Shown: in pieces, positions 25,532-41,260 of the stretch
Layout: each line of letters begins with the position of its first letter
Numbering within the stretch: position 1 is the first letter of the stretch
From: Ochrobactrum teleogrylli
GTDB taxonomy: Bacteria > Pseudomonadota > Alphaproteobacteria > Rhizobiales > Rhizobiaceae
Assembly: GCF_006376685.1 (NCBI RefSeq)
Contig: NZ_VEWL01000001.1
Span: forward strand, 124,001 to 188,000
Reading direction: 5' to 3'
DNA length: 64,000 nucleotides
Position numbers and translations under genes: made by a program
The notes under the pieces: generated by a model
The model's input: only the letters and a program-made list of their open reading frames with translations
Database searches by the model: none
Told to the model about the DNA's origin: nothing

Positions 25532-27562
25532 TCAGGCGGCTTGCGCCTCGCCCTTCTTGTCGAGGCCGAGGTGAATGGCGGGCGCGGGCCGCCCAAGCAG
25601 GAAGCCCTGCACCTGATTGCAGCCTTCTTCCTGCAAAATATCCATCTGCGTCTGCGTTTCCACACCTTCGGCCAGCACCGGAATATCGAGGCTCTGGCCC
25701 AGCGCCAGAATCGCCCGCACGAAAGCCTTCGATTGCACGTTCTGGTCCAGATCGGTGACGAAGCTGCGGTCGAGCTTGATCTTGTCGAATGGGAAGGAAC
25801 GCAATGTCGCCAGCGACGAATAGCCGGTGCCGAAATCATCGATGGCGATGCTGACGCCAAGCGCCTTGAGTTCACGCAGGATATGCAGCGCGCGCGCCTT
25901 GTCGCGGATGATCGCGCCTTCGGTCACTTCAAGCTCCAGCAGTTTTGCCGGTAGGCCGGTTTCGTTCAAAATATTTTGAACTGTGTCCACGAGGCCGGTA
26001 TGGCTGAGCTGTAGCGGGGAAATATTGACCGCTATCCTGCGGGAAACGGGCCAGCTTGCCGCTTCTTTGCAGGCTGCACGCAATACCCATTCGCCGAGCT
26101 GCGTAATGACGCCCGATTCTTCGGCTATCGGAATGAACAGGGTTGGCGGCACCAGACCCTGCACGGGGTGACGCCAGCGCAGCAGAACTTCATAGCCCGA
26201 TATGCCGCCATCCTTGATGCTGCGCTGGACCTGAAAATTCAGGAAGAACTGGTTTTCGTCAATCGCCGTCCAGACATCGCGTGCCAGCGCAGCACGCTTG
26301 CGCGCCGCTTCATCCATGCTGCTTTCATAGTAGCAAATCTTGTTCTCAATGTTCTGTTTGGCGCGATACATGGCCATATCCGCATTGGACAGAAGCTTTT
26401 CCACATCCTCGGCGTCGGTTGGATAGATTGCGATGCCGAGGCTTGCGCCGGGGCGCACAACGGCATTGCCAAGGTCCACAAGATCGCTAAGCGCTATGTT
26501 AAGTCGTGAGACGAAGCTGCGCAGATCGTCCTCATCCTGAAATGTCTTCAGGGCTGCAAATTCATCGCCGCCGAAGCGACCGATCAGCTCGCCGCTTTCC
26601 AGATGTTCGGTCATGCGGGCCGAAATCTCGCAAAGCAGCCTGTCACCCGCGGCGTGGCCATAGAGGTCATTGACCTCCTTGAAGCGATCCAGATCGATGC
26701 CGATCAGTGCAATGCGGTGGTCGCCATTATCGGCATTGACCTTTTCGCGGCTGAGGCGTTCGACGAACTGGGTGCGGTTGGGCAATCCGGTCAGCGAGTC
26801 GTGACGGGCAATGTGTTGCAACTGCCGCAGGTTGGAAGACTGGACGTGGCTGTCGATCAGGTAACTGGCAAGGGCAGTGCCAAGCACAATCAGGCCGACT
26901 CCGCCGACAGAAGCGGCAAGGGTGAACTTGTCGGCAAGCTCCGCTTCTTGCAGATAGTTCATCGGCGTCACGGTCAGCGCCGCCATGCCGGTGAAATGCA
27001 GGCTGACGACGGCTGCGGTAAAGGCCAGAACCGCCAGACGGTAGGAGGTCGGGTAGCGACACCGCATCAAAAACTGGCCGGAGAGCGAGCCAAACAACAC
27101 GGCAAACACGATGGATGCATAGAAATAATCCATGTTCCATTCGATCAGCCCGTCCACGCGATAGGCGAGCATGCCGATATAGTGCATGGTGGCAATTGAT
27201 GCGCCCACCATGGCGCCGCCGATGACGGGGGCAAAGCGGGGAAAGCCGCCGGTCATGACCACGAAGCCGATTCCCGTGCCGACAACGGCAATCGCCAGCG
27301 ACAGGATGGTAAGGTCTGGCAGAAGCACCACGGGCGCGCTCGGCTCATAGGCCAGCATGGCGACGAAATGCGTGCACCAGGCGGTTGAGCCAGATGCGAT
27401 CGCCACCAGAAAATGCCAGCCATAGCGCACGAAGCCATGACATCTGGCGGCCTTGCGGACGAGATTGAGCGTGATCGCGGAACCCACGAGGCAGATCAGC
27501 GCTGCCAACGTTGTCAGCCACGCGTCATGCTGCGTGGCAATGCAATTGAGAACGGTCATCAT
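25532..27562 (-). CDS. MHYT-GGDEF-EAL cyclic-di-GMP signalling protein
   Basis: A 676-residue inner-membrane protein. The N-terminal 230 residues have seven membrane segments with repeated MHYT-type motifs (THFVAMLAY, MHYIGMLAY, LHFTGMAAL), a proposed sensor of oxygen, NO or CO via metal. A GGDEF diguanylate cyclase domain follows with intact GRFGGDEF but ESGE in place of the RxxD inhibitory site. The EAL phosphodiesterase domain has EVLLRW instead of EALLRW but keeps the Glu, NISP, ELEVTE, DDFGTGYSS, KLD and EGVET residues. Both activities are therefore possible. Start is ATG 27562 or 27559. Confidence 0.92.
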   Translation of the reverse strand: MMTVLNCIATQHDAWLTTLAALICLVGSAITLNLVRKAARCHGFVRYGWHFLVAIASGSTAWCTHFVAMLAYEPSAPVVLLPDLTILSLAIAVVGTGIGFVVMTGGFPRFAPVIGGAMVGASIATMHYIGMLAYRVDGLIEWNMDYFYASIVFAVLFGSLSGQFLMRCRYPTSYRLAVLAFTAAVVSLHFTGMAALTVTPMNYLQEAELADKFTLAASVGGVGLIVLGTALASYLIDSHVQSSNLRQLQHIARHDSLTGLPNRTQFVERLSREKVNADNGDHRIALIGIDLDRFKEVNDLYGHAAGDRLLCEISARMTEHLESGELIGRFGGDEFAALKTFQDEDDLRSFVSRLNIALSDLVDLGNAVVRPGASLGIAIYPTDAEDVEKLLSNADMAMYRAKQNIENKICYYESSMDEAARKRAALARDVWTAIDENQFFLNFQVQRSIKDGGISGYEVLLRWRHPVQGLVPPTLFIPIAEESGVITQLGEWVLRAACKEAASWPVSRRIAVNISPLQLSHTGLVDTVQNILNETGLPAKLLELEVTEGAIIRDKARALHILRELKALGVSIAIDDFGTGYSSLATLRSFPFDKIKLDRSFVTDLDQNVQSKAFVRAILALGQSLDIPVLAEGVETQTQMDILQEEGCNQVQGFLLGRPAPAIHLGLDKKGEAQAA

Positions 27563-28101
27563 GGAATGAAATAGCCCCGATAGCCTTTAGAAGCGAGGTC
27601 AGGGCACTGGACTGCCCAAAGTGATTGGCTTGGTCTCAATGGCGGTCAGTGGTGATCCGACAGATAAACCTGGCTGTGCAAGGTCGGTCTTTACAAATGC
27701 AGAAACTGGACCGGGATCGCGCAGCCGACAGGCGCAGGCCTTGTCACCGCACGGCGGCATGTCATGATCGCGTTACCCATCCTGGCCCCCCAGCCAAATC
27801 CGGCTCAATTTCGATGGGCCTTGGTTGCATAGTATTTCCTGATTAGCGGTTAACGCGAATATCAAGATTGTGATTGGGAGATCATTTTCACAAGAATGTT
27901 ATAAGAAAGCATCTGCTGTTACAGCGTTTTCGAAAATGAACCGGCATTGCCTGGTGGATGAAGTGTCATACTGCCCGATAATTAAGAGTATATGGTCTAC
28001 ATCTTTAAATGATCGCATCTTCAGATGTTGAATAGGGCCTCTTGGTTCTGTGGTTAAATTCCGTTATTGCAGGCGTTGTTAATATGGTGGGGATACCGGG
28101 C
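27563..28101. other. Intergenic region between divergent genes
   Basis: About 540 bases with no convincing gene. It lies between the MHYT-GGDEF-EAL gene and the tandem hydrolase gene, which are transcribed away from each other, so promoters for both should be here. The right half (from about 27830) is AT-rich. I see no strong inverted repeat or RNA structure. Confidence 0.4.
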
Positions 28102-29877
28102 ATGGGCGACGGCGTGGAAACTATACCATCTTCCAAGCCTCTGGAGGGCACGGCGGCGGCCAGTCCGATTGTCTTTTCCGACACTCTGGGCCTGTTTCAG
28201 CGTGCTTATGGTACGGGGCTCGATACGGTCGTCGTCTTCGCCAGCCCATGGGGGCTGGAAGAACTTTGCACGACCCGGAAATTCTGGCGTATCATTGCCG
28301 ACAGGCTGTCTCAGCATGGGATTGCATCCTTGCGCTTCGACTGGCCGGGCACCGGCGACGGGCGCGATGACATTGATTTTTCTTCCGGTCTGGAACGCTG
28401 GCGAAAGGCGCTGATCGAAGCGGCGGACAAGGCGCGGCTTTTGTCGGGCGCGAGCCGTGTTGTCATCATCGGGCAGAGCCTTGGTGCGGCGGTTGCTGCT
28501 GAAACGGCTCCACATATTGAAGGTCTGGCGGCGCTGGCGCTGCTGGCACCGGTGATTTCCGGTCGGTTTTACACCCGCGAGTTGGCGGTGTGGTCGAGCA
28601 TGGTCGATGCCGATCTCGGCCTTCCCGATGCGCAGCGGATCAAGGGGGCGGTTTCCATTGCATCCCTGACGATGACGCCCGAAATTGCCGCAGATGTGAA
28701 GAAGATCAATCTCCTGTCGCTCTCTGAAAAGCCTGCGGACACGTGCCTTCTGCTAGCAAGGGCCGACCGCCCGAACGATGCGGAACTGGCCGGGCATCTG
28801 GAAAAGCTCGGCGTGGCAGTCACGGTGGAAGCCTTCACCGATTACGACAAGCTGATTTCCAACCCGGTTATTTCGCACCTGCCGTTGAATGTTGCCGACA
28901 GACTGGTCGATTGGGCAGTGCCGCTTGCGGATGGCAGACCGGCCCAAAAAAGTGCCGATGAAACCAACCTCGGTGGGCAGATCAGGGGCGACGGCTTTGT
29001 CGAAATGCCGGTGGCCTTCGGCCCGAACAATCGTCTGTCGGGTGTGCTCTGCAAACCCTTGGGCGACAGCAAGGGGCATACGGTCCTCTTCCTCTCGTCC
29101 TCTTATGATCGGCGCGTTGGATGGGGCCGCACCACGGTCGATATGGCGCGCAGATTGGCGCGGGACGGTGTTTCGTCGCTGCGCTTTGATATCGCCAATG
29201 CCGGTGACAGCCCGCCCATTCCGGGCATGCCGGAACAGGTGCTTTATACCCATGCGCCGGAAATGGATGTCGCTGACGCGCTGGATTATCTGGATGCCAT
29301 CGGGCTGGGGCGTCCGGTTGTGGCGGGGCGGTGCAGCGGCGCTTTCCTCGGGCTGCATTGCGCGGTGCTGGACGAGCGGATTTCGGGTGCCGTGCTGGTC
29401 AATCCGGTGACATTCTATTGGGCGCCGGAGCTTTCGGTCGAAGATGTGGTACGGGAAGGCAATCGGACGCTGGAAGATTATGGCAGCCGCGCCATGCGAC
29501 TCGATACGTTCAAGCGCCTGTTTCGCGGAGAACTCGATATTCGCGCTATCCTGCGCAACCTCGCACGCGGTGTCGGCGGACGTATTCGCGGATTGGCGCG
29601 CAAGCTTTTGCGCAGCCGCACCGTTGAAGGCCGGGCAATCTATTCCGCTTTCGATGAATTGAAATTGCGGCAGGTGCCGCTGACGCTGATCTATGCCGAG
29701 AAGGACAGCGGCCGCGAGTATTTCAATTACTATTTCGATCAGGCAGGCGACAAGGTGCAGGGCTTTGACAATGTGAAAGTCGCAGTCATTCCGGACGCCG
29801 ATCACAATCTGACGCCCGAACATGCGCGCAACGTCTATATCGACGCCATCCGCGCGCTGGCTTTAGAAACGCGTTAA
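28102..29877 (+). CDS. Tandem alpha/beta hydrolase protein (Ser and Cys nucleophile elbows)
   Basis: A 591-residue cytoplasmic protein made of two alpha/beta hydrolase domains in a row. Domain 1 (about 30-290) has the core ASLRFDWPGTGDG and the nucleophile elbow GQSLGA with Ser126. Domain 2 (about 310-585) has SSLRFDIANAGDSPP and the elbow GRCSG with Cys411 at the nucleophile position, as in dienelactone hydrolases; a late ADHNLTPEHAR supplies a candidate catalytic His. GGGGA at 28089-28093 is 8 bases before ATG 28102, chosen over TTG 28042 and ATG 28084. Its stop overlaps the stop of the convergent GH2 gene, suggesting membership of the neighbouring pathway. A thioesterase or acyl-transfer role is inferred. 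Confidence 0.75.
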   Translation: MGDGVETIPSSKPLEGTAAASPIVFSDTLGLFQRAYGTGLDTVVVFASPWGLEELCTTRKFWRIIADRLSQHGIASLRFDWPGTGDGRDDIDFSSGLERWRKALIEAADKARLLSGASRVVIIGQSLGAAVAAETAPHIEGLAALALLAPVISGRFYTRELAVWSSMVDADLGLPDAQRIKGAVSIASLTMTPEIAADVKKINLLSLSEKPADTCLLLARADRPNDAELAGHLEKLGVAVTVEAFTDYDKLISNPVISHLPLNVADRLVDWAVPLADGRPAQKSADETNLGGQIRGDGFVEMPVAFGPNNRLSGVLCKPLGDSKGHTVLFLSSSYDRRVGWGRTTVDMARRLARDGVSSLRFDIANAGDSPPIPGMPEQVLYTHAPEMDVADALDYLDAIGLGRPVVAGRCSGAFLGLHCAVLDERISGAVLVNPVTFYWAPELSVEDVVREGNRTLEDYGSRAMRLDTFKRLFRGELDIRAILRNLARGVGGRIRGLARKLLRSRTVEGRAIYSAFDELKLRQVPLTLIYAEKDSGREYFNYYFDQAGDKVQGFDNVKVAVIPDADHNLTPEHARNVYIDAIRALALETR

Positions 29878-32324
29878 AACCAGACGGTGCGCGACGATCC
29901 GGCAATGCGAATTTCGCCGGACGGTTTGCCTTCGCCACCATGGCGGGGCAGAAGCGCGACGCGCTTCGTCTCGCCGGGAGCGAGATGGAACCAGTTTTCC
30001 GTTGCCCGCCAGCCTTCGGCGTCAATGCTGACCGATTGCGCCAGCACGGCTGTGCTGAGATCGAGAAACCAGTTGCCGCTCTCTTCCACGACACTGCATT
30101 CAATTGTCGCGTCGTGAAAGGCTTTGGTGCGCCCCTGCGGAAAATGAAAGGCCTCGGCGATAGTGGCTTCGCTGCGTTTCAACCGGGCGACCGTCACGTC
30201 ATGGGCCGGGGGGCCGAAGCGATAGGCATAAGTCGTATCGAAAAATGCGCCGAACAATTCGGTTGCCGGTATTGTGACACCGGAACGCGCTGTCAGCGAA
30301 AGATCGCGGTGACCGCTCACGACGGGTTGCCCCCCGGCGCGCAGGCAAGTGAGTTCCAGTGTCAAATCGGCGTCATGCGGTTGTTCGTTCAGCACGTGAA
30401 TGGCAAGCCCGTTGACGCCTTCGTCGGTCAGGCCAACCTGCACCGGGCGAAAAGCGCGTTTCAGCCCATACCACGAGGGTTTGGGTTCACAGGTCGCATC
30501 GACCACGCCCCAGCCGGCACCGGGCAACACATCCTGAAACGTCCAGACCAAGGCACCGAAGCAGGTGCTTGCCGGTCGTCGCCATTCGGCGAAAGTCGCC
30601 TCCATCACTTCCGCCGTGACGGCGCGGGAAAGGTGTAGATATTGCTCCATATCCTCCCGCCGCAAGCGGGCCGGATCATAGCCATAGAGCATTTCCAGAT
30701 AGGTATCGCGCACGTCCTCGAAATCCCATGACACGCCGCGATCACGCGGAACACGCGCTTTCCAGCGCGGATCATGGACGGCGGGCACGTCGAGATGCGC
30801 CTTGAGCGTGCGTGCCTCCGGGACATTGGAAAAAGCAAGGCTTTCGGTCGCAAAGCGCACTTCGGCGCGGCGCGCATCGTCCAGCGGCCTGCAATAGGCG
30901 CTGACGCCATAATAATGGCTGACGCCTTCGTTGCTGATGAAGGGCAGAGCGCCATCACAGGGCGAGTTCGGCACATAGGGAATGCCGGGACAGAGTTTGC
31001 GCGCAACGGCGGGCAAAATCTCTTCGGTCAGCGCGCCTTTCCAGATTGTCTCGGGCAGGCCCATCATGGCGCCTTGCTGATAAATCTCACTGCCGCCGCA
31101 CAACACGGTGAGCGAAGGAGCATGGCGAATGGCGGAAAGAAGTTGTTGCGTCTCCGCCTGTACCTTGGCGACGAAGCCTTCGTCTTTCAGCGGATAGTCG
31201 AAATTGGCGAACATGAAGTCCTGCCAGACCATGATGCCGAGCTCGTCGCAAACGGCATAAAAGTCAGGCGTTTCATAAGCCGTAATGCCGCTGACGCGCA
31301 GCATGTTCATGCCAGCGTCCTGCGCAAGCTGCAGCCACGGTTGATAGTCGGCGCGTGCGCCCGGCAGCCGGACTATATCGGCGGAACTCCAGACAGCACC
31401 GCGACAAAAAATTTTCTCGCCATTAATCACCAGCGCGAAGGATTTTCCGTCCGCACCGCGATCAACGCCGATACGGCGAAAGCCGGTTCGGCCAAGCTTC
31501 TGCTTTTCATTGCCAAGCGACAATTCCACTTGATGGAGTGTCGGCGTGCCATGGGTATGCGGCCACCACGATTCCACGGCGGGGATGGTCAGCTGTGCCT
31601 GCCAGCGGCTATCCGCTTGTCTGTCACAGGCGATCTGCGAACCCGCGCAATGCAGGGTCAGATTTTCAGCCTTGCCTTCGTAAGTAAAACTAACGGCAAG
31701 TTCTCCGTCGCCATTTTCATGAAACGTGGATTGGATGGAGATATTGCTGACCGCTTCCGCGTCGGGTCGGCTGATCGTCACTGGCCGCCAAGGGCCGACA
31801 GCGTGAATTTCCGGGCACCAGCCCGGCATATGGCCGAGCGCGGTGGTGCGGATCAGGCGCAAGCCTTGCGTATTCATCAACTGCGTGCGCCAGCGTGCGC
31901 GCGGGCCCTTTTGCTCCAGCCGGGGGCCAAGAGCGCGGAAACAAAGCGCCAGCTCATCCGCGCCCGTCAGCGTGACGGGAAGGTCGTGGGCGAGGAACAT
32001 GCTGTCGCTGTTGTGAACCAAAGCGCCGTTCAGATAGACTTCGCAGATCGTGGCAAGGCCCGCAAAATGCAACACCGCCTCACCGGCTGTTTCGGTAAGG
32101 TCGAGAAAATACCACGCATCCTGATTGTGCAGCGGTGTCGGAGCAGTGCGGCTGAAACGCCCTGCTTTTTCCAGCGCTTCCGCGACCGTGCCCGGAACCG
32201 GCGCATCGAGATACGCCCCGTTGCGCGGCACATCAGCGGGCGACGCGGCCTCATTGGCTGCGGTCAGAAAAAGCCGCCAGCCTTCGGCAAGCGGGCGGCT
32301 TGATGCAGCTTGTTCAGGCAGCAT
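29874..32324 (-). CDS. GH2 family glycosidase, beta-mannosidase-like
   Basis: An 816-residue protein with the GH2 layout: a jelly-roll sugar-binding domain (about 15-190), an Ig-like domain (about 190-290) and a TIM barrel (about 295-620) followed by C-terminal beta domains. The barrel keeps FRRIGVDR, GMNMLRVSG and WQDFMFANFDYP, typical of beta-mannosidases. The acid/base position reads CGGSE (Glu413) where the family usually has GNNE or GNE, and the nucleophile candidate is Glu494 in FATESLAFSN. There is no signal peptide, so it acts in the cytoplasm. The ATG at 32324 overlaps the DUF1839 gene by 11 bases; a TTG at 32345 is possible. It is the last gene of the carrier-protein operon. Confidence 0.82.
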   Translation of the reverse strand: MLPEQAASSRPLAEGWRLFLTAANEAASPADVPRNGAYLDAPVPGTVAEALEKAGRFSRTAPTPLHNQDAWYFLDLTETAGEAVLHFAGLATICEVYLNGALVHNSDSMFLAHDLPVTLTGADELALCFRALGPRLEQKGPRARWRTQLMNTQGLRLIRTTALGHMPGWCPEIHAVGPWRPVTISRPDAEAVSNISIQSTFHENGDGELAVSFTYEGKAENLTLHCAGSQIACDRQADSRWQAQLTIPAVESWWPHTHGTPTLHQVELSLGNEKQKLGRTGFRRIGVDRGADGKSFALVINGEKIFCRGAVWSSADIVRLPGARADYQPWLQLAQDAGMNMLRVSGITAYETPDFYAVCDELGIMVWQDFMFANFDYPLKDEGFVAKVQAETQQLLSAIRHAPSLTVLCGGSEIYQQGAMMGLPETIWKGALTEEILPAVARKLCPGIPYVPNSPCDGALPFISNEGVSHYYGVSAYCRPLDDARRAEVRFATESLAFSNVPEARTLKAHLDVPAVHDPRWKARVPRDRGVSWDFEDVRDTYLEMLYGYDPARLRREDMEQYLHLSRAVTAEVMEATFAEWRRPASTCFGALVWTFQDVLPGAGWGVVDATCEPKPSWYGLKRAFRPVQVGLTDEGVNGLAIHVLNEQPHDADLTLELTCLRAGGQPVVSGHRDLSLTARSGVTIPATELFGAFFDTTYAYRFGPPAHDVTVARLKRSEATIAEAFHFPQGRTKAFHDATIECSVVEESGNWFLDLSTAVLAQSVSIDAEGWRATENWFHLAPGETKRVALLPRHGGEGKPSGEIRIAGSSRTVWF

Positions 32325-33294
32325 CGCGGCCAAGTTCTGTTGCAAGCGCCCCCGTCATGCGATCCCATGCTTCGGCGGCAGGTGTCAGCGCGCTTGCCAG
32401 TGCGTCGAATTTCTTGCGCATCACGGCACGCGCAAGCTGGAATTGCACGGCCTTGGCCGTTTCGGCGATCTGGATCGCATCGGCGGCAGCAGCGGTGAAA
32501 CGCTTGCCTTCGCCCAGCCATTGCAGATGGCTTGCAGCCAGTTCGAAATTTGCACCAAGTTGGCGCAGCGTGTTGAACGCATATTTGTGAAAGAAGCCGA
32601 AGGGGCGTTCGGCGATGGCTTCTACCTGCGCCGGAAACACAGCGGCGAAGGCGCGGATCGGATTGGCCTTGGGCCTGCGCGCAAAATGGCGTGGCAGCAG
32701 AATTTCTGCCACGCGCCGCTGATGCGCTTCACCGGGCATTTCCTTCGGGAACTTCGCAAATTCCGTATAGGGCAGGAAGGGTAGGTCTGCTTCTGTCAGA
32801 TGGCGCTGAAAGACACCGTCAAAATCCTCGCCCTCCAGATGGTAGAAACCGCCATTGTGGAAATAATCGAGCGAGCGGTTCCCAACATCCATGCGGTTGA
32901 TCGCGATGGTGGTCTTGCCATGTTCGGTGCGATAGCTCACGCCCTGCGTGTCAGGCATGAAATAGCTGTCCATCTCCACCATGCACAGCCGTCCGCGCCC
33001 GATCTGTTCCGCGATATGGCCTTCCACACTGTCGAAGATCGCAAGTTCCGTTGCCCGCACACCATAGAGCGCTTCGAGGTCTTCCAGCGGCACCTTGAAG
33101 AAGGTGAACTGGTCGCCCTCGAAATCCTGCGTCAGGGTAAAGCCCAGCATCGCTTCGGGCACGACCCGAAGCGATGCCAGCACTTCGATCCAGAGATCGA
33201 CATAGCAATTGGTTTCGGGCCAGATGCGTGTCTGCGCATGCAGCGCATGCGGCGCGTAGGTTTCTGGCGAGATATGCGGAAAGACTGCCTGCAT
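32314..33294 (-). CDS. DUF1839 family protein, candidate cysteine acyltransferase
   Basis: A 326-residue protein of the DUF1839 family. Near the N-terminus Cys30 lies at the start of a hydrophobic helix (ETNCYVDLWIEVLASL), followed by the FTLTQDFEGDQFTFFK block, and His125 lies in a strand pair (MVEMDSYFMPDTQG, then TEHGKTTIAI). This Cys-helix and later His pattern resembles papain/C39-like folds such as the BtrH N-terminal domain, which transfers an aminoacyl chain from a carrier protein in butirosin synthesis. That resemblance is my reading of the sequence, not a search result. It follows the ligase gene by 41 bases and overlaps the GH2 gene. A Shine-Dalgarno site for ATG 33294 is weak. Confidence 0.75.
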   Translation of the reverse strand: MQAVFPHISPETYAPHALHAQTRIWPETNCYVDLWIEVLASLRVVPEAMLGFTLTQDFEGDQFTFFKVPLEDLEALYGVRATELAIFDSVEGHIAEQIGRGRLCMVEMDSYFMPDTQGVSYRTEHGKTTIAINRMDVGNRSLDYFHNGGFYHLEGEDFDGVFQRHLTEADLPFLPYTEFAKFPKEMPGEAHQRRVAEILLPRHFARRPKANPIRAFAAVFPAQVEAIAERPFGFFHKYAFNTLRQLGANFELAASHLQWLGEGKRFTAAAADAIQIAETAKAVQFQLARAVMRKKFDALASALTPAAEAWDRMTGALATELGRDAA

Positions 33295-33335
33295 AACCTT
33301 GATCGATCCTCGTTTCACTCCGGTCGGATTATGCT

Positions 33336-34244
33336 TTAACCCCACAATTCGTTGCGTACGCTTTCTGGCCAGGCTTTGACGTCGAGGCCGTGATGATGGA
33401 ACAGCGCCAATGCGATGCGCTCCAGTCCGAAACCGACGCAAGCCGTGTGCGCGACTTCACCGTCATGTTGCGACAGGCCCCATTTCACGCCGAACTGGTC
33501 CTGATGATAGTTGAAGCTCATGCAGGCGGTTGGCTTTTCGACGCTGGTGATCGGGATCAGCAATTCGAATTTCAGGTTCTGGTCGCGCTGGTTGTTGACC
33601 AGCAAACGACCCGCGCGTCCAAAGAAAGGATCGTTCGCCACGTCGATTTCAACTGGCAGGCCGACTTTCTTCATCATGTCCGTGCCGCGCTCTATCCAGA
33701 GCTGGCGGAACTCCATCACATCGGCTTCCGTGCCCATGCGCACATATTCGCGCATGCGGAACAACTGCTGGCGGGCAGGGTCCACCGAAGGTTCATGGCG
33801 GAAGCAATAGGATTGCAGGTCATAGAGGCCGCCGCCCTGCGGCAGCGGACCGCGCTTGGCAATGGTCGGATAAAGCGGGTAGCAGGCGGCGGGCGTCAGG
33901 ACGATGTCCGTTGCCTTCTGCTCCAGCGTCCAGTCTTGCCCCTCATCCATGCATTTGATGAGGTTGATATGATCCAGCTCGCAACCGCAGAAGCTGTGCA
34001 CCGTGCCGGCCAGCTGCGGGAAGCTCTTCATATAGCCGCTTTTTTCGAAGTAAGCGCGATTGAGGCCGGGCGGAAAGCGGATCGCTTCGGCACCATCGCC
34101 GCCGCCGGTGCGGTCAATGAGGCGCTCGAAGGCCACGATGACATCTTCAAACTGGCCGGAACGTCCGTAGAGGCCGTCCACGCCGGTTTCAATCAGCAGT
34201 CCGGCATCGAAAAGCCGGTTGAGAAAAGATCTTTGCGCGTCCAT
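33336..34244 (-). CDS. Amino acid:[carrier protein] ligase (truncated SerRS-like)
   Basis: A 302-residue class II synthetase core without the N-terminal tRNA-binding arm of seryl-tRNA synthetase. Motif 2 is at residues 148-170 (FRHEPS...[10 protein letters not shown]) and motif 3 at 271-282 ([12 protein letters not shown]). Cys121, Glu166 and Cys269 stand where archaeal-type SerRS and the carrier-protein ligases bind zinc. Homologues from Bradyrhizobium and Agrobacterium are known to load small amino acids on the phosphopantetheine of a dedicated carrier protein instead of tRNA. The carrier-protein gene two positions upstream in the same operon fits this. The ATG lies 4 bases after the upstream stop. 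Confidence 0.88.
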
Positions 34245-34248
34245 GGCG

Positions 34249-35421
34249 TTATCCCAAGAGGCTTGTGTTCTGTTTGTGAATGAGCAGCATGGTCGCCGTA
34301 TTGCCGAGGATGCGCTCGTTGGAAATCATCAATTGCGCCGAATGCGCATCGCGCAAATGGCGGCCAAGGCTATAGGGCGTGCCATTCTTGTAGCCCATGA
34401 TGCCGCACACCAGCATGGCGTGGTTGATGACCTGCAGAATGGTCTGCGATGCGGCAATCTTCAGATTGTTCATCGCTATGGCAAAGCCCATGGAAGCGAG
34501 CTTGTCGGCGTCGTGCTTCGCGTCCTTATAAGTCTTGAGGCAGGCGACGATTTCCGATTTCAGCATTTGCAGCATGTTGGAGGCTTCCGCGACGCGCAAA
34601 GCGCCCGGCTGCGGTGCGCCCGGATTGCGGCGCGCTGCGGCACGCACAAAAGCCTGCGCGCGGTTCACTGCGTCCACAGCGATGCCGTACCAGAGCGAAC
34701 TCCACAATGTATGCGACTGCGCCAGCATCGATTGCGCGGCAATCTCGGCAAATGGATGCGGCAGGATCTGCACCTTGTCCGCTTCGCCGCGAAATACAAA
34801 GCCTTCCGAACAGGTGCCGCGCATGCCCAGCGTGTCCCATTCATTGGTCTTTTCCAGCGTGTACTGGTCTTTGCGGAAAACGGTCATGACCTGATCGGAC
34901 GAGGCCGCATCTTTATGCGAACGCGACGTGATCAGGATGGCATCGGCATAGACGCCATAGGAAATAACCGTGGCGTTCTTTTCCAGACGGCAGGTGTCGC
35001 CGTCGATTTCAATTGCGCAGATGGAATTGCGCAGATCGCCGCCAATGCCGCCTTCCGTGGTGGCGGAAGCAAGCAGCAACTGCTGGTCCGCAACGTCGCG
35101 CATGAAGCCGCGATGCCATTCGACCGATTGCCCATGCTCCACAAGGCTCGATAGCTTGATGTGGTGCATGGCGAAGATCATCGCGCTTGCAGCGCAGGAT
35201 TGCCCCAGAATGCAGCAGAGTTCTGCAATCTTGTCGATCTCCGCGCTTTCGCCGCCCAGATCGCGCGACACCTGAATGCCCAGCAATCGTTCGGCCTTCA
35301 TCGCATCGATGGCTTCGCGCGGAAAGCGCCCTTCCTTATCGACTTGATCAGCGAATTTTCCGGCGATGGCTGCTACGCGACCGGCACGCTCGGAAAGGCT
35401 GTTCCCCCCGCCTGCATTCAT
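34249..35421 (-). CDS. Acyl-CoA dehydrogenase-like flavoprotein of the carrier-protein operon
   Basis: A 390-residue protein with the acyl-CoA dehydrogenase fold: N-terminal helical domain ([19 protein letters not shown]), the central beta domain ([30 protein letters not shown]) and a C-terminal helical domain ([19 protein letters not shown]). In ordinary dehydrogenases the C-terminal block reads RDAxxxxIYEGTNEI with the catalytic Glu; here the aligned position is Ile, so alpha,beta-dehydrogenation may use another base or the enzyme may be an oxygenase/oxidase of the same fold. The ATG overlaps the stop of the carrier-protein gene by one base (TAATG). A carrier-bound aminoacyl substrate is inferred from context. 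Confidence 0.85.
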
Positions 35422-35672
35422 TATGCGGCCTCGTTATCCTTGAGGATGCTGGTGATCGTCTGTTCAATCGCGCTGATGCTCGCAAAGGATTTGCGGTTCA
35501 GAAACTGATCCGGAAATTCGATGTCGAATTTGTCTTCAAGGCCCAGCATCAGCTGCACCGAGGCGAAGGACGACAGGCCCGCCGTATAAAGATCGGCATC
35601 GTCTGCAATGTCGGTCACGGCTATGGGCAATCCGCCGACCTTGGCCAGAATTTCCCGAATGGATTCATTCAT
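35421..35672 (-). CDS. Acyl carrier protein of the amino acid:CP ligase system
   Basis: An 83-residue acidic four-helix carrier protein. The phosphopantetheine site aligns as GLSSFASVQLMLGLEDKF, with Ser35 as the attachment residue; the usual preceding Asp of DSL is Ser. An LSSF-type site separates these dedicated aminoacyl carriers from fatty-acid ACP. It is the first gene of a tight minus-strand operon (carrier protein, flavoprotein, ligase, DUF1839, GH2), and its start faces a 375-base intergenic region shared with a divergent permease gene. Confidence 0.88.
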   Translation of the reverse strand: MNESIREILAKVGGLPIAVTDIADDADLYTAGLSSFASVQLMLGLEDKFDIEFPDQFLNRKSFASISAIEQTITSILKDNEAA

Positions 35673-38194: not shown

Positions 38195-41100
38195 GTGCGG
38201 TCGGGGACACTAGCGGGGATGCGTGGCGCGCCGGGATGGCGCTATCTTTGTGCGATGATAGTCGGGCTTTTTGCCTTGATATCCGGCTCATTGGCGGCTC
38301 AATCTGCACCGATCGCCTACCCATATCAAACTACCGGATTTAAGAATTCGTCTTTCAGTGGCCAGCTTTCGGCGACTGGTGCCGGTAATCTGACTTTTGT
38401 ACTGGGAACCAACGCGCAGGATGGCCGCGTTTTTATAAATTCCGGCAGCGGAATCTTTACTTATACGCCTGACCCGGGGTTCATCGGGGTCGATACGTTC
38501 ACTTATCAGGTATCGGATGATTATGGTATTAATACTGCCCGTGTAACTATCAATATAGTGGATTCCGCGGAAGTAACGTCAGTGTCTGTTCCTGGACCAG
38601 GCTATTACAAAGCTGGTGAAAAGTTGAACTTTTCTGTAATTTTTGATCGAAATGTCACCGTACAGGGGGTTCCGTCCATACCTGTCGTCATAGGCCAAGT
38701 CACCCGAAGCGCGGTTTATCAGGGAACAGCCGGGGGTAAGGTCCTGACTTTTTCCTATACTGTCCAGCCCGGCGATATAGACATGAACGGTATTAGTCTC
38801 GCCTCAATGATAGATTTGAACGGCGGTAATATTTTCAATAGCGCAAACGAACCATCGAATCCTCGGCTCAACAATGTTGGTGCTACGAACGGGGTTCTTG
38901 TTAGTACAGCCAATCCAACAGTGGTGCTTTCGACGTCATCGCCCGCCTCCAGCGACGAGAAGATCATTACCATCACTTTCTCGGAAGCGGTCTTGGGACT
39001 GGAAGAGAGCGATTTCAAGATATCCACTACAGGACTCCATGAAATTACGTATCGTTTGGATTCATCCGTTAACAATATAGTTTATACGCTTCGAATGCAG
39101 GTAAAGAGTAGTGAATCGGTCCAAATACAACTACCAGATAACGCTGCCGTGAGTTTTTTTGGAAATAAAAGTCTTGCGTCCAACATATTGGATATTTCAG
39201 TTGTTAAATCATCCGATGCGAATTTGCAGAATCTTATTCCCAGCACAGGTACTTTAACGCCCGCCTTTGCTCCCAACACAAACGCATACACGTTGAATGT
39301 CGCAAACGATGTGGAGAGCATTTCGTTCATCCCATCGCTTGCAGATATCAACGCAACGGCTGTCGTCAATGGGGCTTCAACGCCCAATGGAACGTCCAGC
39401 GCTGCAATCCCATTGGTGGTGGGGAGCAACACGGTTACCACGACTGTTACCGCGCAGGATGGAACCACCACGAAGAGCTATACGGTCAATGTCATTCGCG
39501 CGCAGTCCGGCAATGCCGAACTGGTGGGCCTTGTTCCGAGCGCTGGATCTCTTGACCCGGCATTTTCGCCGAACGCGACGACTTACGCGCTGACGGTTCC
39601 AACCGAAACATCGTCGTTACAACTAACACCCACTTCTGCTGATCCGACGGCAACCATCGCGGTCAACGGGGCAACCGTTGCGTCCGGTAGCGCGAGCAGT
39701 GCGTTTCCGTTGGGCATCGGCAATACGACCCTAACGGTTGTCGTCACTGCGCAAAATGGAACGACACGCAGCTATACGGTGAATGTCACGCGCGCTGTGT
39801 CGGCAGATGCAACGCTTGCGAGCCTTGTTCCGAGCGTCGGATCGCTGGACCCGGCATTTGACAAGGAGACGCTCAGCTATTCTGTCAACGTCGAGAATAG
39901 TGTCGAGAGCATTTCATTCGTGCCAACCGTTTCCGAGCCTTCCGCCCGGGTAAGTGTTGCAGGAAGCAATGTTGCGTCGGGAAGTTCAAGCGCTCCGGTG
40001 GGGTTGGGGGTTGGTGCGAATACGGTTTCGATTGTTGTAACGGCCCCAAGCGGCGCCAATCGCAGCTACACGGTGGTTGTCAGCCGTGCGGCGCTGGTCT
40101 TCCCGGACCCGACGCTTGATCCCGAAGTGATCGGCCTGTTGAACGCGCAGACAAGTGCGGCACGACGTTTTGCGCAAGTTCAAACCCGGAATTTTCAAAA
40201 CCGGCTTGAGCAATTGCATGATGAAGGCGACCGCAGAAAGTCCAGTCTCGGTGTACGGCTCGGCGGGCAGGCGTCCAACGCGGCACCGGTGGACCAGTCC
40301 GACCGGTCTTCTTCAGCGTCTGCAACGCCCAATGCGGCCCTTGGCTATGCGCCCGAAAAGCGCAATGCTTTTCCGGGCAGGGCGATCGGCCTGAAGGACC
40401 CGGAACAGCCCGCACCAGCTTTGGACCCTGACCTTGGACCATTCGCATTCTGGAGCAGCGGCTTCGTCAATTTTGGTGAGCGCGATAGTGGCAAGCTCGA
40501 TCTGGACTATACGCTTGTGGGCGTGAGTGGCGGTATCGACTATCGGTTTTCGGGACGGTTCGTGGCCGGTTTTGGCGTAGGCTATGGGCGGGATCGGACC
40601 GACATTGGTGACAACGGCACGGAAAGCCGTGCCAATGCTTACAGCGCCGCCGTCTATGGCAGTTTCAAGCCGCTCGACAATTTCTTTATCGATGCGCTGG
40701 TGGGCGGCAGCATTCTGGATTTTGATTCCATCCGTTTCATCACGACAGACGGAAGTTTGACCGACGGCAAACGCGACGGCAGCCAGATGTTCGGGTCTCT
40801 GACGGTGGCCTACGAATTTCGTCAGGAAACCTGGCTGGTTTCACCCTATGGCCGGTTGGAAATGTCGCGTTCCTGGCTCGATGGCTATGCCGAAGGCGGA
40901 GACAGCATCTATCGGCTGACCTATGGCGATCAAACCGTGGACACCGTCACGGGTGTGGTTGGTCTGCGCGCCAATTACGCCATCGACTACACATGGGGCC
41001 GTTTGACGCCGGGTGTGCGGGCAGAATACGCGCATGATTTTCAAGGGGCGAGCCGGGCCGCAATGGGCTACAGCGCACTCGGTGGGCTTCCTTATGCGCT

Positions 41101-41260
41101 CGACATCGAAGGCGAGAGCAGCGATAGCGGAAATGTCGGTCTGTCGCTTGATTTCAGTTTCGAAAATGCCTGGACCACCGGCGTAGAATATCAGACCGGC
41201 TTCGGCGGCTCTGGCGCGCGAGACCACGCATTCGCACTGCGGGTCGGTGCGAAGTTCTGA
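38195..41260 (+). CDS. Autotransporter with Ig-like and cadherin-like beta-sandwich repeats
   Basis: A 1021-residue surface protein. After a signal peptide (AMIVGLFALISGSLAAQSA) comes a bacterial Ig-like/cadherin-type domain (DGRVFINSGSGIFTYTPDPGFIGVDTFTYQVSD, about residues 70-125) and a second beta domain (about 130-345). Three tandem repeats of about 92 residues follow (about 345-630), each starting LxxLxPSxGxLxPAF and ending GTxxSYTVxVxRA. A linker leads to a C-terminal autotransporter barrel (about 740-1021) ending in an aromatic strand at RVGAKF. It is probably an adhesin displayed on the cell surface. AGGGGGA at 38184-38190 precedes GTG 38195 by 4 bases; ATG 38219 is an alternative. 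Confidence 0.87.
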   Translation: MRSGTLAGMRGAPGWRYLCAMIVGLFALISGSLAAQSAPIAYPYQTTGFKNSSFSGQLSATGAGNLTFVLGTNAQDGRVFINSGSGIFTYTPDPGFIGVDTFTYQVSDDYGINTARVTINIVDSAEVTSVSVPGPGYYKAGEKLNFSVIFDRNVTVQGVPSIPVVIGQVTRSAVYQGTAGGKVLTFSYTVQPGDIDMNGISLASMIDLNGGNIFNSANEPSNPRLNNVGATNGVLVSTANPTVVLSTSSPASSDEKIITITFSEAVLGLEESDFKISTTGLHEITYRLDSSVNNIVYTLRMQVKSSESVQIQLPDNAAVSFFGNKSLASNILDISVVKSSDANLQNLIPSTGTLTPAFAPNTNAYTLNVANDVESISFIPSLADINATAVVNGASTPNGTSSAAIPLVVGSNTVTTTVTAQDGTTTKSYTVNVIRAQSGNAELVGLVPSAGSLDPAFSPNATTYALTVPTETSSLQLTPTSADPTATIAVNGATVASGSASSAFPLGIGNTTLTVVVTAQNGTTRSYTVNVTRAVSADATLASLVPSVGSLDPAFDKETLSYSVNVENSVESISFVPTVSEPSARVSVAGSNVASGSSSAPVGLGVGANTVSIVVTAPSGANRSYTVVVSRAALVFPDPTLDPEVIGLLNAQTSAARRFAQVQTRNFQNRLEQLHDEGDRRKSSLGVRLGGQASNAAPVDQSDRSSSASATPNAALGYAPEKRNAFPGRAIGLKDPEQPAPALDPDLGPFAFWSSGFVNFGERDSGKLDLDYTLVGVSGGIDYRFSGRFVAGFGVGYGRDRTDIGDNGTESRANAYSAAVYGSFKPLDNFFIDALVGGSILDFDSIRFITTDGSLTDGKRDGSQMFGSLTVAYEFRQETWLVSPYGRLEMSRSWLDGYAEGGDSIYRLTYGDQTVDTVTGVVGLRANYAIDYTWGRLTPGVRAEYAHDFQGASRAAMGYSALGGLPYALDIEGESSDSGNVGLSLDFSFENAWTTGVEYQTGFGGSGARDHAFALRVGAKF

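What the first reader, a model, noticed from the sequence alone, without database searches (positions are those of the whole stretch)
28102..35672. Candidate undescribed aminoacyl-carrier-protein pathway
Five minus-strand genes with overlaps or gaps of at most 41 bases encode a dedicated carrier protein, an acyl-CoA dehydrogenase-like flavoprotein, a tRNA-synthetase-derived amino acid:carrier-protein ligase, DUF1839 and a GH2 glycosidase; a tandem alpha/beta hydrolase gene converges on them with overlapping stops. The ligase family is known biochemically in Bradyrhizobium and Agrobacterium, but I know of no assigned end product. My model: the ligase loads a small amino acid on Ser35 of the carrier, the flavoprotein oxidises it, DUF1839 moves it to an acceptor (perhaps a glycoside) and the GH2 enzyme trims the sugar.
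Basis: partly seen in the sequence, partly recalled or inferred. Interest (0 to 1): 0.88.

Follow-up and report, generated by a model that had tools for sequence, protein, structure and literature searches.

The report
Operon attaching amino acids to sugars
A conserved set of six bacterial genes probably loads a small amino acid onto a carrier protein and then joins it to a sugar, possibly one of the sugars of a surface or biofilm polysaccharide; the idea was already in print as a prediction, but the sugar and the product are still unknown.

Summary
Observation confirmed. Five minus-strand genes (carrier protein, ACAD-fold flavoprotein, aa:CP ligase, DUF1839, GH2) are packed at 29874-35672; a tandem alpha/beta hydrolase converges on them. 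All five are in order in 80 of 80 named loci, and DUF1839 adjoins the ligase in 16 of 16 genomes that carry it (398 sampled).

It is not undescribed: a 2010 note (PMC2922099) reported this neighbourhood and predicted attachment of an amino acid to a cell-surface sugar amine, with Atu2574 (by position, DUF1839) forming the amide.

Open: the amino acid, the flavoprotein's reaction, the acceptor, GH2's role. The window's genome lacks that Wzx.

The parts
35421..35672 (-). dedicated aminoacyl carrier protein, phosphopantetheine site Ser35
   Evidence: PF00550 and NF005480 over cut-off; phmmer E 2.6e-31 to aminoacyl carrier protein 4h2w_C and 2.7e-31 to Atu2571 2jq4; S35 kept in at least 97% of 105 sequences
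34249..35421 (-). ACAD-fold flavoprotein; dehydrogenase or group-D monooxygenase, probably acting on the carrier-bound amino acid
33336..34244 (-). class II aaRS-derived amino acid:carrier-protein ligase
   Evidence: NF005479 512.1 bits, cut-off 357; E 2.3e-97 to Bll0957-type structures; C121, E166, C241 kept in at least 97% of 107 sequences
32314..33294 (-). DUF1839, predicted carrier-protein-dependent amide synthetase (aminoacyl transferase) of CcbD/CtaG fold
29874..32345 (-). GH2 beta-mannosidase-like glycosidase, no signal peptide seen by eye
   Evidence: PF22666, PF00703, PF17753; E 3.7e-53 to beta-mannosidase 5n6u; E420 and E501 in 95 of 95
28042..29877 (+). tandem alpha/beta hydrolase (hydr2-like plus hydr1-like); C-terminal domain with Cys431 nucleophile
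   Evidence: TIGR03101 at 53-237 and TIGR03100 at 332-599, both below cut-off; C431 in 75 of 75; position 146 Gly in 58, Ser in 13, Arg in 4 of 75; homologue fused to Wzx in 13 of 80 named loci

Best explanation
The operon is an aminoacyl-glycoside synthetase. (1) The ligase activates a small amino acid (glycine or alanine; that choice is recalled from work on relatives) and loads it on the Ser35 phosphopantetheine of the carrier protein: strongly inferred from close characterised relatives. (2) The ACAD-fold flavoprotein oxidises the carrier-bound amino acid, either by monooxygenation, perhaps on nitrogen, or by dehydrogenation: inferred. (3) DUF1839 takes the aminoacyl group on its active-site Cys and passes it to an amino group of a sugar, forming an amide, as CcbD does in lincosamide synthesis: inferred from fold, conserved residues and operon. 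(4) The sugar belongs to a glycan building block; in Burkholderia probably the c-di-GMP-controlled Bep exopolysaccharide, elsewhere unknown. (5) The tandem hydrolase, with its Cys nucleophile, does a second acyl transfer or proof-reading step at the flippase stage, and GH2 hydrolyses or remodels unfinished glycosides in the cytoplasm: weak inference.
Against: No product or acceptor is known. The window genome has no homologue of the Rhizobium Wzx or of the GumK-like transferase, and 43 of 80 named loci show no polysaccharide gene within 10 kb, including all 13 nearest loci, L049-L061, and 11 of 14 Agrobacterium-named ones. The 37 of 80 figure has no background control. The B. cenocepacia stretch L223 shows no hydrolase homologue. 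No amino-sugar biosynthesis gene was recognised in the operon. DUF1839's triad seems permuted (T/S where His is expected, PMC10318531), and in two genomes the copy beside the ligase lacks the Cys, so catalysis is unproven. The window DUF1839 has no BtrH_N match. The profile search ranks dehydrogenases above N-oxygenases for the flavoprotein, and an acidic residue is kept at position 369.
Confidence: 0.55

Rival explanations
1. The cassette makes a small diffusible aminoacyl-sugar (a lincosamide-like metabolite, signal or antimetabolite), not a polysaccharide decoration; GH2 frees or trims the sugar and transporters export it.
For: Five- or six-gene cassettes without recognised polysaccharide genes beside them in the window, Azospirillum and a conjugative Rhizobium plasmid among transposase genes; 43 of 80 named loci without polysaccharide genes within 10 kb. 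In the window two transporter genes, Mem_trans and EamA, lie just upstream. CcbD makes an antibiotic, CtaG too (recalled).
Against: Hydrolase-Wzx fusions and the place inside Burkholderia exopolysaccharide loci. The two upstream transporters are kept only in L049-L051, 3 of 80 loci.
Confidence: 0.22
2. The carrier is only a workbench for amino acid modification: ligase loads, flavoprotein oxidises, and DUF1839 and/or the hydrolase release a free modified amino acid (for example N-hydroxy- or dehydro-amino acid); the glycosidase serves another step.
For: 12 of 28 ligase genomes keep flavoprotein and ligase without DUF1839 or GH2, with a weak carrier match in 9 of the 11 whose regions I fetched; papain-fold and alpha/beta hydrolases often hydrolyse thioesters (recalled).
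Against: DUF1839 matches CcbD-class transferases over its full length; GH2 follows DUF1839 in 16 of 16 genomes, which is unexplained here.
Confidence: 0.13
3. A Dlt-like route: the aminoacyl group is put as an ester on a glycan by the hydrolase's Cys domain, DUF1839 being an accessory or editing enzyme.
For: Carrier weakly matches DltC models (30 and 22 bits, below cut-off); invariant Cys431; a distant ligase locus has an MBOAT protein nearby (L163).
Against: No MBOAT or DltD-like gene among the operon proteins scanned; hydrolase not in the fetched flank in 15 of 80 loci; it sits beside Wzx in the two cases found apart from the core.
Confidence: 0.06
4. An ordinary nonribosomal peptide system, as first suggested for these ligases.
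For: Carrier protein and amino acid activation.
Against: No adenylation, condensation or thioesterase module in the nine proteins scanned; the glycosidase and polysaccharide links; the 2010 note argues against it (PMC2922099).
Confidence: 0.04

Closest known systems
aa:CP ligase / aminoacyl carrier protein pairs of Bradyrhizobium (Bll0957) and Agrobacterium (Atu2571 carrier; its ligase Atu2573 is recalled)
   Same: Orthologous ligase and carrier: E 2.3e-97 and 2.6e-31 to the solved structures; the whole five-gene order is kept in Agrobacterium-named loci such as L074, L076 and L079.
   Different: No product is known for either; PMC9437257 says the biological role remains unknown (passages).
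Prediction of Biol Direct 2010 5:48 (PMC2922099)
   Same: Same gene neighbourhood; same idea of an amide between amino acid and sugar amine made by the conserved ORF Atu2574, with a redox enzyme doing monooxygenation.
   Different: In the passages I saw there is no fold for Atu2574, no mention of the tandem hydrolase, and no link to Bep or c-di-GMP.
Lincosamide synthetase component CcbD/LmbD
   Different: 13% identity; CcbD has a Cys-His-Glu triad, DUF1839 an apparently permuted one; lincosamide genes use a stand-alone adenylation domain, not an aaRS-like ligase.
Butirosin BtrH
   Same: A papain-fold ACP:aminoglycoside acyltransferase (PMC10318531, passages).
   Different: The window DUF1839 has no BtrH_N match; one Burkholderia-like homologue gives E 0.15 only.
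Exosortase A (XrtA) exopolysaccharide accessory set: hydrolase 2, hydrolase 1, PLP decarboxylase, ACP
   Same: Same two hydrolases, there usually separate genes; Cys nucleophile in hydrolase 1 in 10 of 10 over-cut-off members and in the fused L194; decarboxylase and an ACP-like protein beside them in L214, the one locus scanned.
   Different: Scores below cut-off in the window; the XrtA locus has a PLP decarboxylase, and no ligase, flavoprotein or DUF1839 was seen in the proteins scanned.
Bep exopolysaccharide of Burkholderia cenocepacia (Bcam1330-1341, BerA, BerB)
   Same: Bcam1334 is listed as a TIGR03100 hydrolase; in L129 and L223 the five core genes lie between a sigma-54 activator and two CRP/FNR regulators; G324 (L149) has export protein, Wzc, acyltransferase, hydrolase, Wzx and glycosyltransferases as in the Bep list.
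   Different: The core genes are not mentioned where I searched; identity with Bcam1343-1347 is my gene count. L223 itself shows no hydrolase homologue and only a 31% identical Wzc.

Membership tests
aa:CP ligase (NF005479) | curated model score over cut-off | tested here: met
   512.1 bits, cut-off 357
aa:CP ligase (NF005479) | class II SerRS-like core without the tRNA-binding domain | tested here: met
   302 aa; only residues 113-299 match the C-terminal part of 518-aa type-2 SerRS models
aa:CP ligase (NF005479) | zinc-site residues conserved | tested here: met
   C121, E166, C241 kept in at least 97% of 107; that these are the zinc ligands is recalled
aa:CP ligase (NF005479) | loads an amino acid on the vicinal carrier | not testable with these tools
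   carrier gene two genes upstream; assay needed
CcbD/CtaG carrier-dependent amide synthetases | fold over the full length | tested here: met
CcbD/CtaG carrier-dependent amide synthetases | nucleophilic Cys at the start of the core helix | tested here: met
   C31 in 94 of 96, one best copy per locus; exceptions L130 and L057, the latter a broken frame; a further Cys-less copy in L132 is outside the count
CcbD/CtaG carrier-dependent amide synthetases | catalytic His and acid in canonical places | tested here: inconclusive
   H126 and H147 in 96 of 96, T129 and T130 each 95 of 96; PMC10318531 reports His and Thr/Ser exchanged; geometry not measured
CcbD/CtaG carrier-dependent amide synthetases | amide formation from a carrier thioester | not testable with these tools
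   assay needed; CtaG's own reaction is recalled, CcbD's is
BtrH (PF14399) | match to the BtrH_N profile | tested here: not met
   no hit listed at E up to 10 for the window protein; E 0.15 for L130
acyl-CoA dehydrogenase | ACAD domains | tested here: met
   27.9 and 24.7 bits, cut-offs 22.9 and 22.4
acyl-CoA dehydrogenase | catalytic Glu at one of the two canonical positions | tested here: not met
   I/V at 366 and S/A/T/C at 236 in 105 of 105; positions set by hand, the Glu positions recalled; residue 369 is Asp or Glu in 104 of 105 and might stand in
group-D flavin monooxygenase / N-oxygenase | closer to monooxygenases than to dehydrogenases | tested here: inconclusive
   best single-sequence PDB hits DnmZ and KijD3, profile search favours dehydrogenases, model slightly favours DszC/TdsC/MsuC
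GH2 beta-mannosidase | acid/base and nucleophile Glu | tested here: met
   E420 and E501 in 95 of 95, assigned by hand; the residue before the acid/base is Ser in 93, Asn in 2
GH2 beta-mannosidase | acts on beta-mannosides | not testable with these tools
   assay needed
exosortase A hydrolases 1 and 2 (TIGR03100, TIGR03101) | score over cut-off | tested here: not met
   78.4 of 168.45 and 57.8 of 202.75
exosortase A hydrolase 1 (TIGR03100) | Cys nucleophile elbow | tested here: met
   75 of 75 in this family; 10 of 10 over-cut-off TIGR03100 members
nonribosomal peptide synthetase | adenylation and condensation modules | tested here: not met
   none in the six operon proteins and three flanking ones scanned

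The most novel reading that the evidence does not exclude
An unrecognised class of biofilm and surface polysaccharides in plant-associated Proteobacteria carries an oxidised small amino acid (for example N-hydroxyglycyl or a dehydroaminoacyl group) in amide linkage. It is put on a sugar by a tRNA-synthetase-derived ligase plus a lincosamide-synthetase-like enzyme, and in Burkholderia it is switched on with Bep by c-di-GMP through BerA and BerB.
Probability: 0.22. Interest if true: 0.85.

Novelty: new variant of a known kind. Interest (0 to 1): 0.62.

Why it matters
The role of aa:CP ligases has stayed open since their biochemistry was published (2010, 2013; PMC9437257 says unknown, passages). 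Giving DUF1839 a precise model enzyme (CcbD) and placing the operon at a known biofilm polysaccharide locus turns a general prediction into direct tests: which amine does DUF1839 acylate, and does the Bep-type polysaccharide carry an amino acid? It would also join three lines that have not been joined in the text I saw: aaRS-like ligases, lincosamide-type amide synthetases, and exosortase-type Cys hydrolases in exopolysaccharide assembly.

Tried and rejected
Flavoprotein as amino-sugar nitrososynthase: the best single-sequence PDB hits are DnmZ and KijD3, but the profile of 40 sequences ranks dehydrogenases first and the model is nearly tied between monooxygenases and dehydrogenases (stretches 122-132, 196-199 and 201-205 of that model have pLDDT under 50). 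Left open.

Partner polysaccharide in the window genome: looked for the Rhizobium-type Wzx and the GumK-like transferase of L062 in G000 and 11 further genomes. Wzx in 4 of 12, GumK-like in 3 of 12, neither in G000. So that particular polysaccharide is not required for keeping the operon. L063's genome was not held and not searched.

BtrH as sequence relative of DUF1839: no hit for the window protein. I fetched BtrH relatives (7 of 120 genomes) and listed their frames, but did not run the profile-profile comparison, because the fold search gave a clearer answer.

Small protein next to the ligase in the second type of locus (L136:10411-11286): no Pfam family for its clustered homologues in L134 and L142, best PDB match E 0.64. 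Not explained.

Acyltransferase genes near the core in L148, L149 and L221 are only weakly alike; not counted as a conserved partner.

Three further open frames over 1000 aa end in the hydrolase (L067, L072, L121) but show no Wzx match at the front; not counted as fusions.

No background rate of polysaccharide genes was computed for the 37 of 80 count; three of the 80 loci (L053, L087, L119) are shorter than the full flank. Papers: ten searches; the two Mocibob papers themselves were not read (2010 not held; 2013 not tried). No functional study of the operon turned up in these listings. Fold searches give no evidence on families they do not list.

I left the odds as they were.
Full report
What is there. 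Going down the minus strand from 35672 to 29874 they are: carrier protein, ACAD-fold flavoprotein, amino acid:carrier-protein ligase, DUF1839, GH2 glycosidase. Junctions are overlap 1, gap 4, gap 41 and overlap 32. A plus-strand tandem alpha/beta hydrolase ends on top of the GH2 stop. The nearest named genomes are Ochrobactrum and Brucella-genus species: 11 of the 13 nearest loci carry these names, the other two are named Rhizobiales bacterium. The residue numbers I give for DUF1839 count from the codon at 33297; the first ATG is at 33294.

Conservation. In the 80 best of 305 related loci all five genes occur in the same order and on the same strand, 80 of 80, and the hydrolase lies within the fetched flank in 65 of 80, 52 of them on the opposite strand. 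These 80 are the closest relatives, so I also used an even draw of 398 genomes of the phylum: ligase at E 0.001 or better in 44, over its cut-off in 28; DUF1839 in 16. All 16 lie within the 28, with a DUF1839 match within 126 bases of the ligase match. The flavoprotein sits next to the ligase in all 28 over-cut-off genomes; DUF1839 and GH2 in the same 16 of 28. So there are two types of locus. In Azospirillum sp. B510 and Mycetohabitans rhizoxinica all six genes run in one direction with the hydrolase directly after GH2. On a conjugative plasmid of Rhizobium leguminosarum the five genes lie among transposase genes without an annotated hydrolase. These are 3 annotated records out of 59 plasmid records with DUF1839; a fourth record I opened, Burkholderia cenocepacia, carries no annotation there.

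Prior art. A note added in proof to Biol Direct 2010 5:48 (PMC2922099, passages) describes this neighbourhood of the SerRS-like ligase: ACP, a redox enzyme, a highly conserved uncharacterised protein, a glycosidase and liposaccharide genes. It predicts that the conserved protein (Agrobacterium Atu2574; [quoted passage not shown] A 2023 survey (PMC10318531, passages) places DUF1839 among papain-like folds with a C-(T/S)-H site and suggests glycan processing. A 2022 review still calls the biological role unknown (PMC9437257, passages).

Ligase and carrier. Both are orthologues of proteins with solved structures: ligase E 2.3e-97 to 4h2w and 1.3e-92 to 3mey, carrier E 2.6e-31 to 4h2w_C and 2.7e-31 to 2jq4, Atu2571. 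Loading of glycine or alanine is recalled from that literature (the review's table names Ala, Gly and Ser); no call shows which amino acid this ligase takes.

Flavoprotein. It has the ACAD fold but non-acidic residues at both positions where acyl-CoA dehydrogenases carry the catalytic Glu, in 105 of 105 (positions set by hand, the Glu positions recalled). Three residues further on, position 369 is Asp or Glu in 104 of 105, so a displaced base is possible. Single-sequence search puts N-oxygenases DnmZ and KijD3 first, the family profile puts dehydrogenases first, the model (pLDDT 81) puts DszC/TdsC/MsuC monooxygenases first by about 1.3 Z units. A precedent for ACAD-fold oxidation of an assembly-line-tethered amino acid, ColB1, is in the same list by its title. 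I lean to monooxygenation, without proof. If the substrate is glycine, alpha-beta desaturation is impossible, which also points to nitrogen or alpha-carbon chemistry (inference).

Tandem hydrolase. Its two halves correspond to exosortase-A hydrolases 2 and 1 (below cut-off). In 75 aligned members the N-terminal nucleophile position is Gly in 58, Ser in 13 and Arg in 4, while the C-terminal elbow has Cys in 75 of 75, with D555 and H588 kept in at least 93%; the Mycetohabitans and Azospirillum proteins have it too. The true exosortase-A hydrolase 1 proteins also have Cys there: 9 of 10 over-cut-off loci by pattern, the tenth by reading its sequence (G-E-C-D-S), and the fused L194. In L214, the one such locus scanned, hydrolases 2 and 1 stand with a PLP decarboxylase and an ACP-like protein. 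In the two searched genomes where Wzx lies away from the core, the hydrolase is beside that Wzx. The hydrolase is therefore linked to polysaccharide translocation.

Polysaccharide context. In a Burkholderia cenocepacia record (L223) the order is sugar transferase, CRP/FNR, CRP/FNR, the five core genes, a sigma-54 activator 96% identical to that of L129, a small gene, ManC, glycosyltransferases, and further on a Wzx; no hydrolase homologue was found in that stretch and its Wzc is only 31% identical to that of L149. The Bep papers list Bcam1334 as a TIGR03100 hydrolase, Bcam1336 as the Wzx-type transporter, Bcam1340 as ManC and Bcam1341 as a predicted acyltransferase, BerB as Bcam1342 and BerA as Bcam1349 (PMC3584217 and PMC5552954, passages). 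Counting genes in L129 and L223, the five core genes would be Bcam1343-1347 and the first CRP/FNR gene Bcam1348. This is my inference; four of those five numbers were searched in PMC3584217 and do not occur, and the words acyl carrier protein do not occur in PMC5552954. In 37 of 80 named loci at least one polysaccharide gene lies within 10 kb, in 29 a Wzx (no background control). Against this, all 13 nearest loci (L049-L061) and 11 of 14 Agrobacterium-named loci have none, and G000 lacks both the Wzx and the GumK-like transferase. The acceptor in the window organism is unknown.

Distant ligases. Weak relatives of the ligase in other families sit near functional counterparts: L168, one gene away from a BtrH_N protein, with ATP-grasp, NRPS parts and a protein with a carrier domain and a weak haem-oxygenase-like match; L167 beside AurF N-oxygenase, a thioester reductase-like protein and a carrier protein; L163 near an MBOAT protein and a PIG-L deacetylase. 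These are single loci, the L168 match is partial, and they suggest, without proving, a recurring theme: aminoacyl carrier, oxygenase, acyl transferase.

Verdict. A real, well-conserved operon with a specific and testable mechanism: aminoacyl transfer from a carrier to a sugar amine by a CcbD-class enzyme. The broad idea was published in 2010. New here, as far as my searches go, are the CcbD/CtaG assignment, the Cys-nucleophile hydrolase with its Wzx fusion and exosortase parallel, and the position at the Bep c-di-GMP locus. Product, amino acid and acceptor remain open.

Noticed in passing
L132:8401-9381 and L132:13232-14452; L130:10435-11421 and L032: Two Burkholderia-like genomes carry two DUF1839 copies: the one beside the ligase lacks the nucleophile Cys, the other has it. 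Possibly an active/inactive pair.
   Followed up: partly
L167:7189-12766: A weak aa:CP ligase relative sits with AurF N-oxygenase, ketosynthase III, thioester reductase-like protein, rubrerythrin-like protein and a carrier protein: an unassigned biosynthetic cluster.
   Followed up: partly
L168:356-16309: A partial aa:CP ligase relative near a BtrH_N protein (a MatE gene between), ATP-grasp, carbamoyltransferase, NRPS parts and a phosphopantetheine protein with a weak haem-oxygenase-like match.
   Followed up: partly
L163:6411-14849: A ligase relative of about 400 aa near MBOAT, DUF1574-like and PIG-L proteins, reminiscent of a Dlt-like glycan aminoacylation system.
   Followed up: no
window 25532-27562: An MHYT-GGDEF-EAL c-di-GMP protein lies next to the operon; EAL-type matches also lie near some other loci (L099, L104, L106, L221).
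   Followed up: no
L224:5767-22062: The five-gene operon lies between transposase genes on a conjugative Rhizobium plasmid, so it may move as a unit.
   Followed up: no
L062:5560-8372: In about 40 of 80 named loci EF-P, a class II lysyl-tRNA-synthetase-like protein and a radical SAM protein (EpmA- and EpmB-like, names recalled) lie just upstream of the carrier gene; probably a coincidence.
   Followed up: no
L057: Several core genes are split into shorter matches in this Brucella cytisi record, from frameshifts in the assembly or real decay.
   Followed up: no
window 38195-41260: A 1021-aa autotransporter with three cadherin-like beta-sandwich repeats.
   Followed up: no
L134:8285-9373 and L136:10411-11286: A conserved protein of about 290 aa without a Pfam match (homologues in L134 and L142 were scanned) follows the ligase in several loci of the second type; it might be the acyl acceptor or transferase there.
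   Followed up: partly
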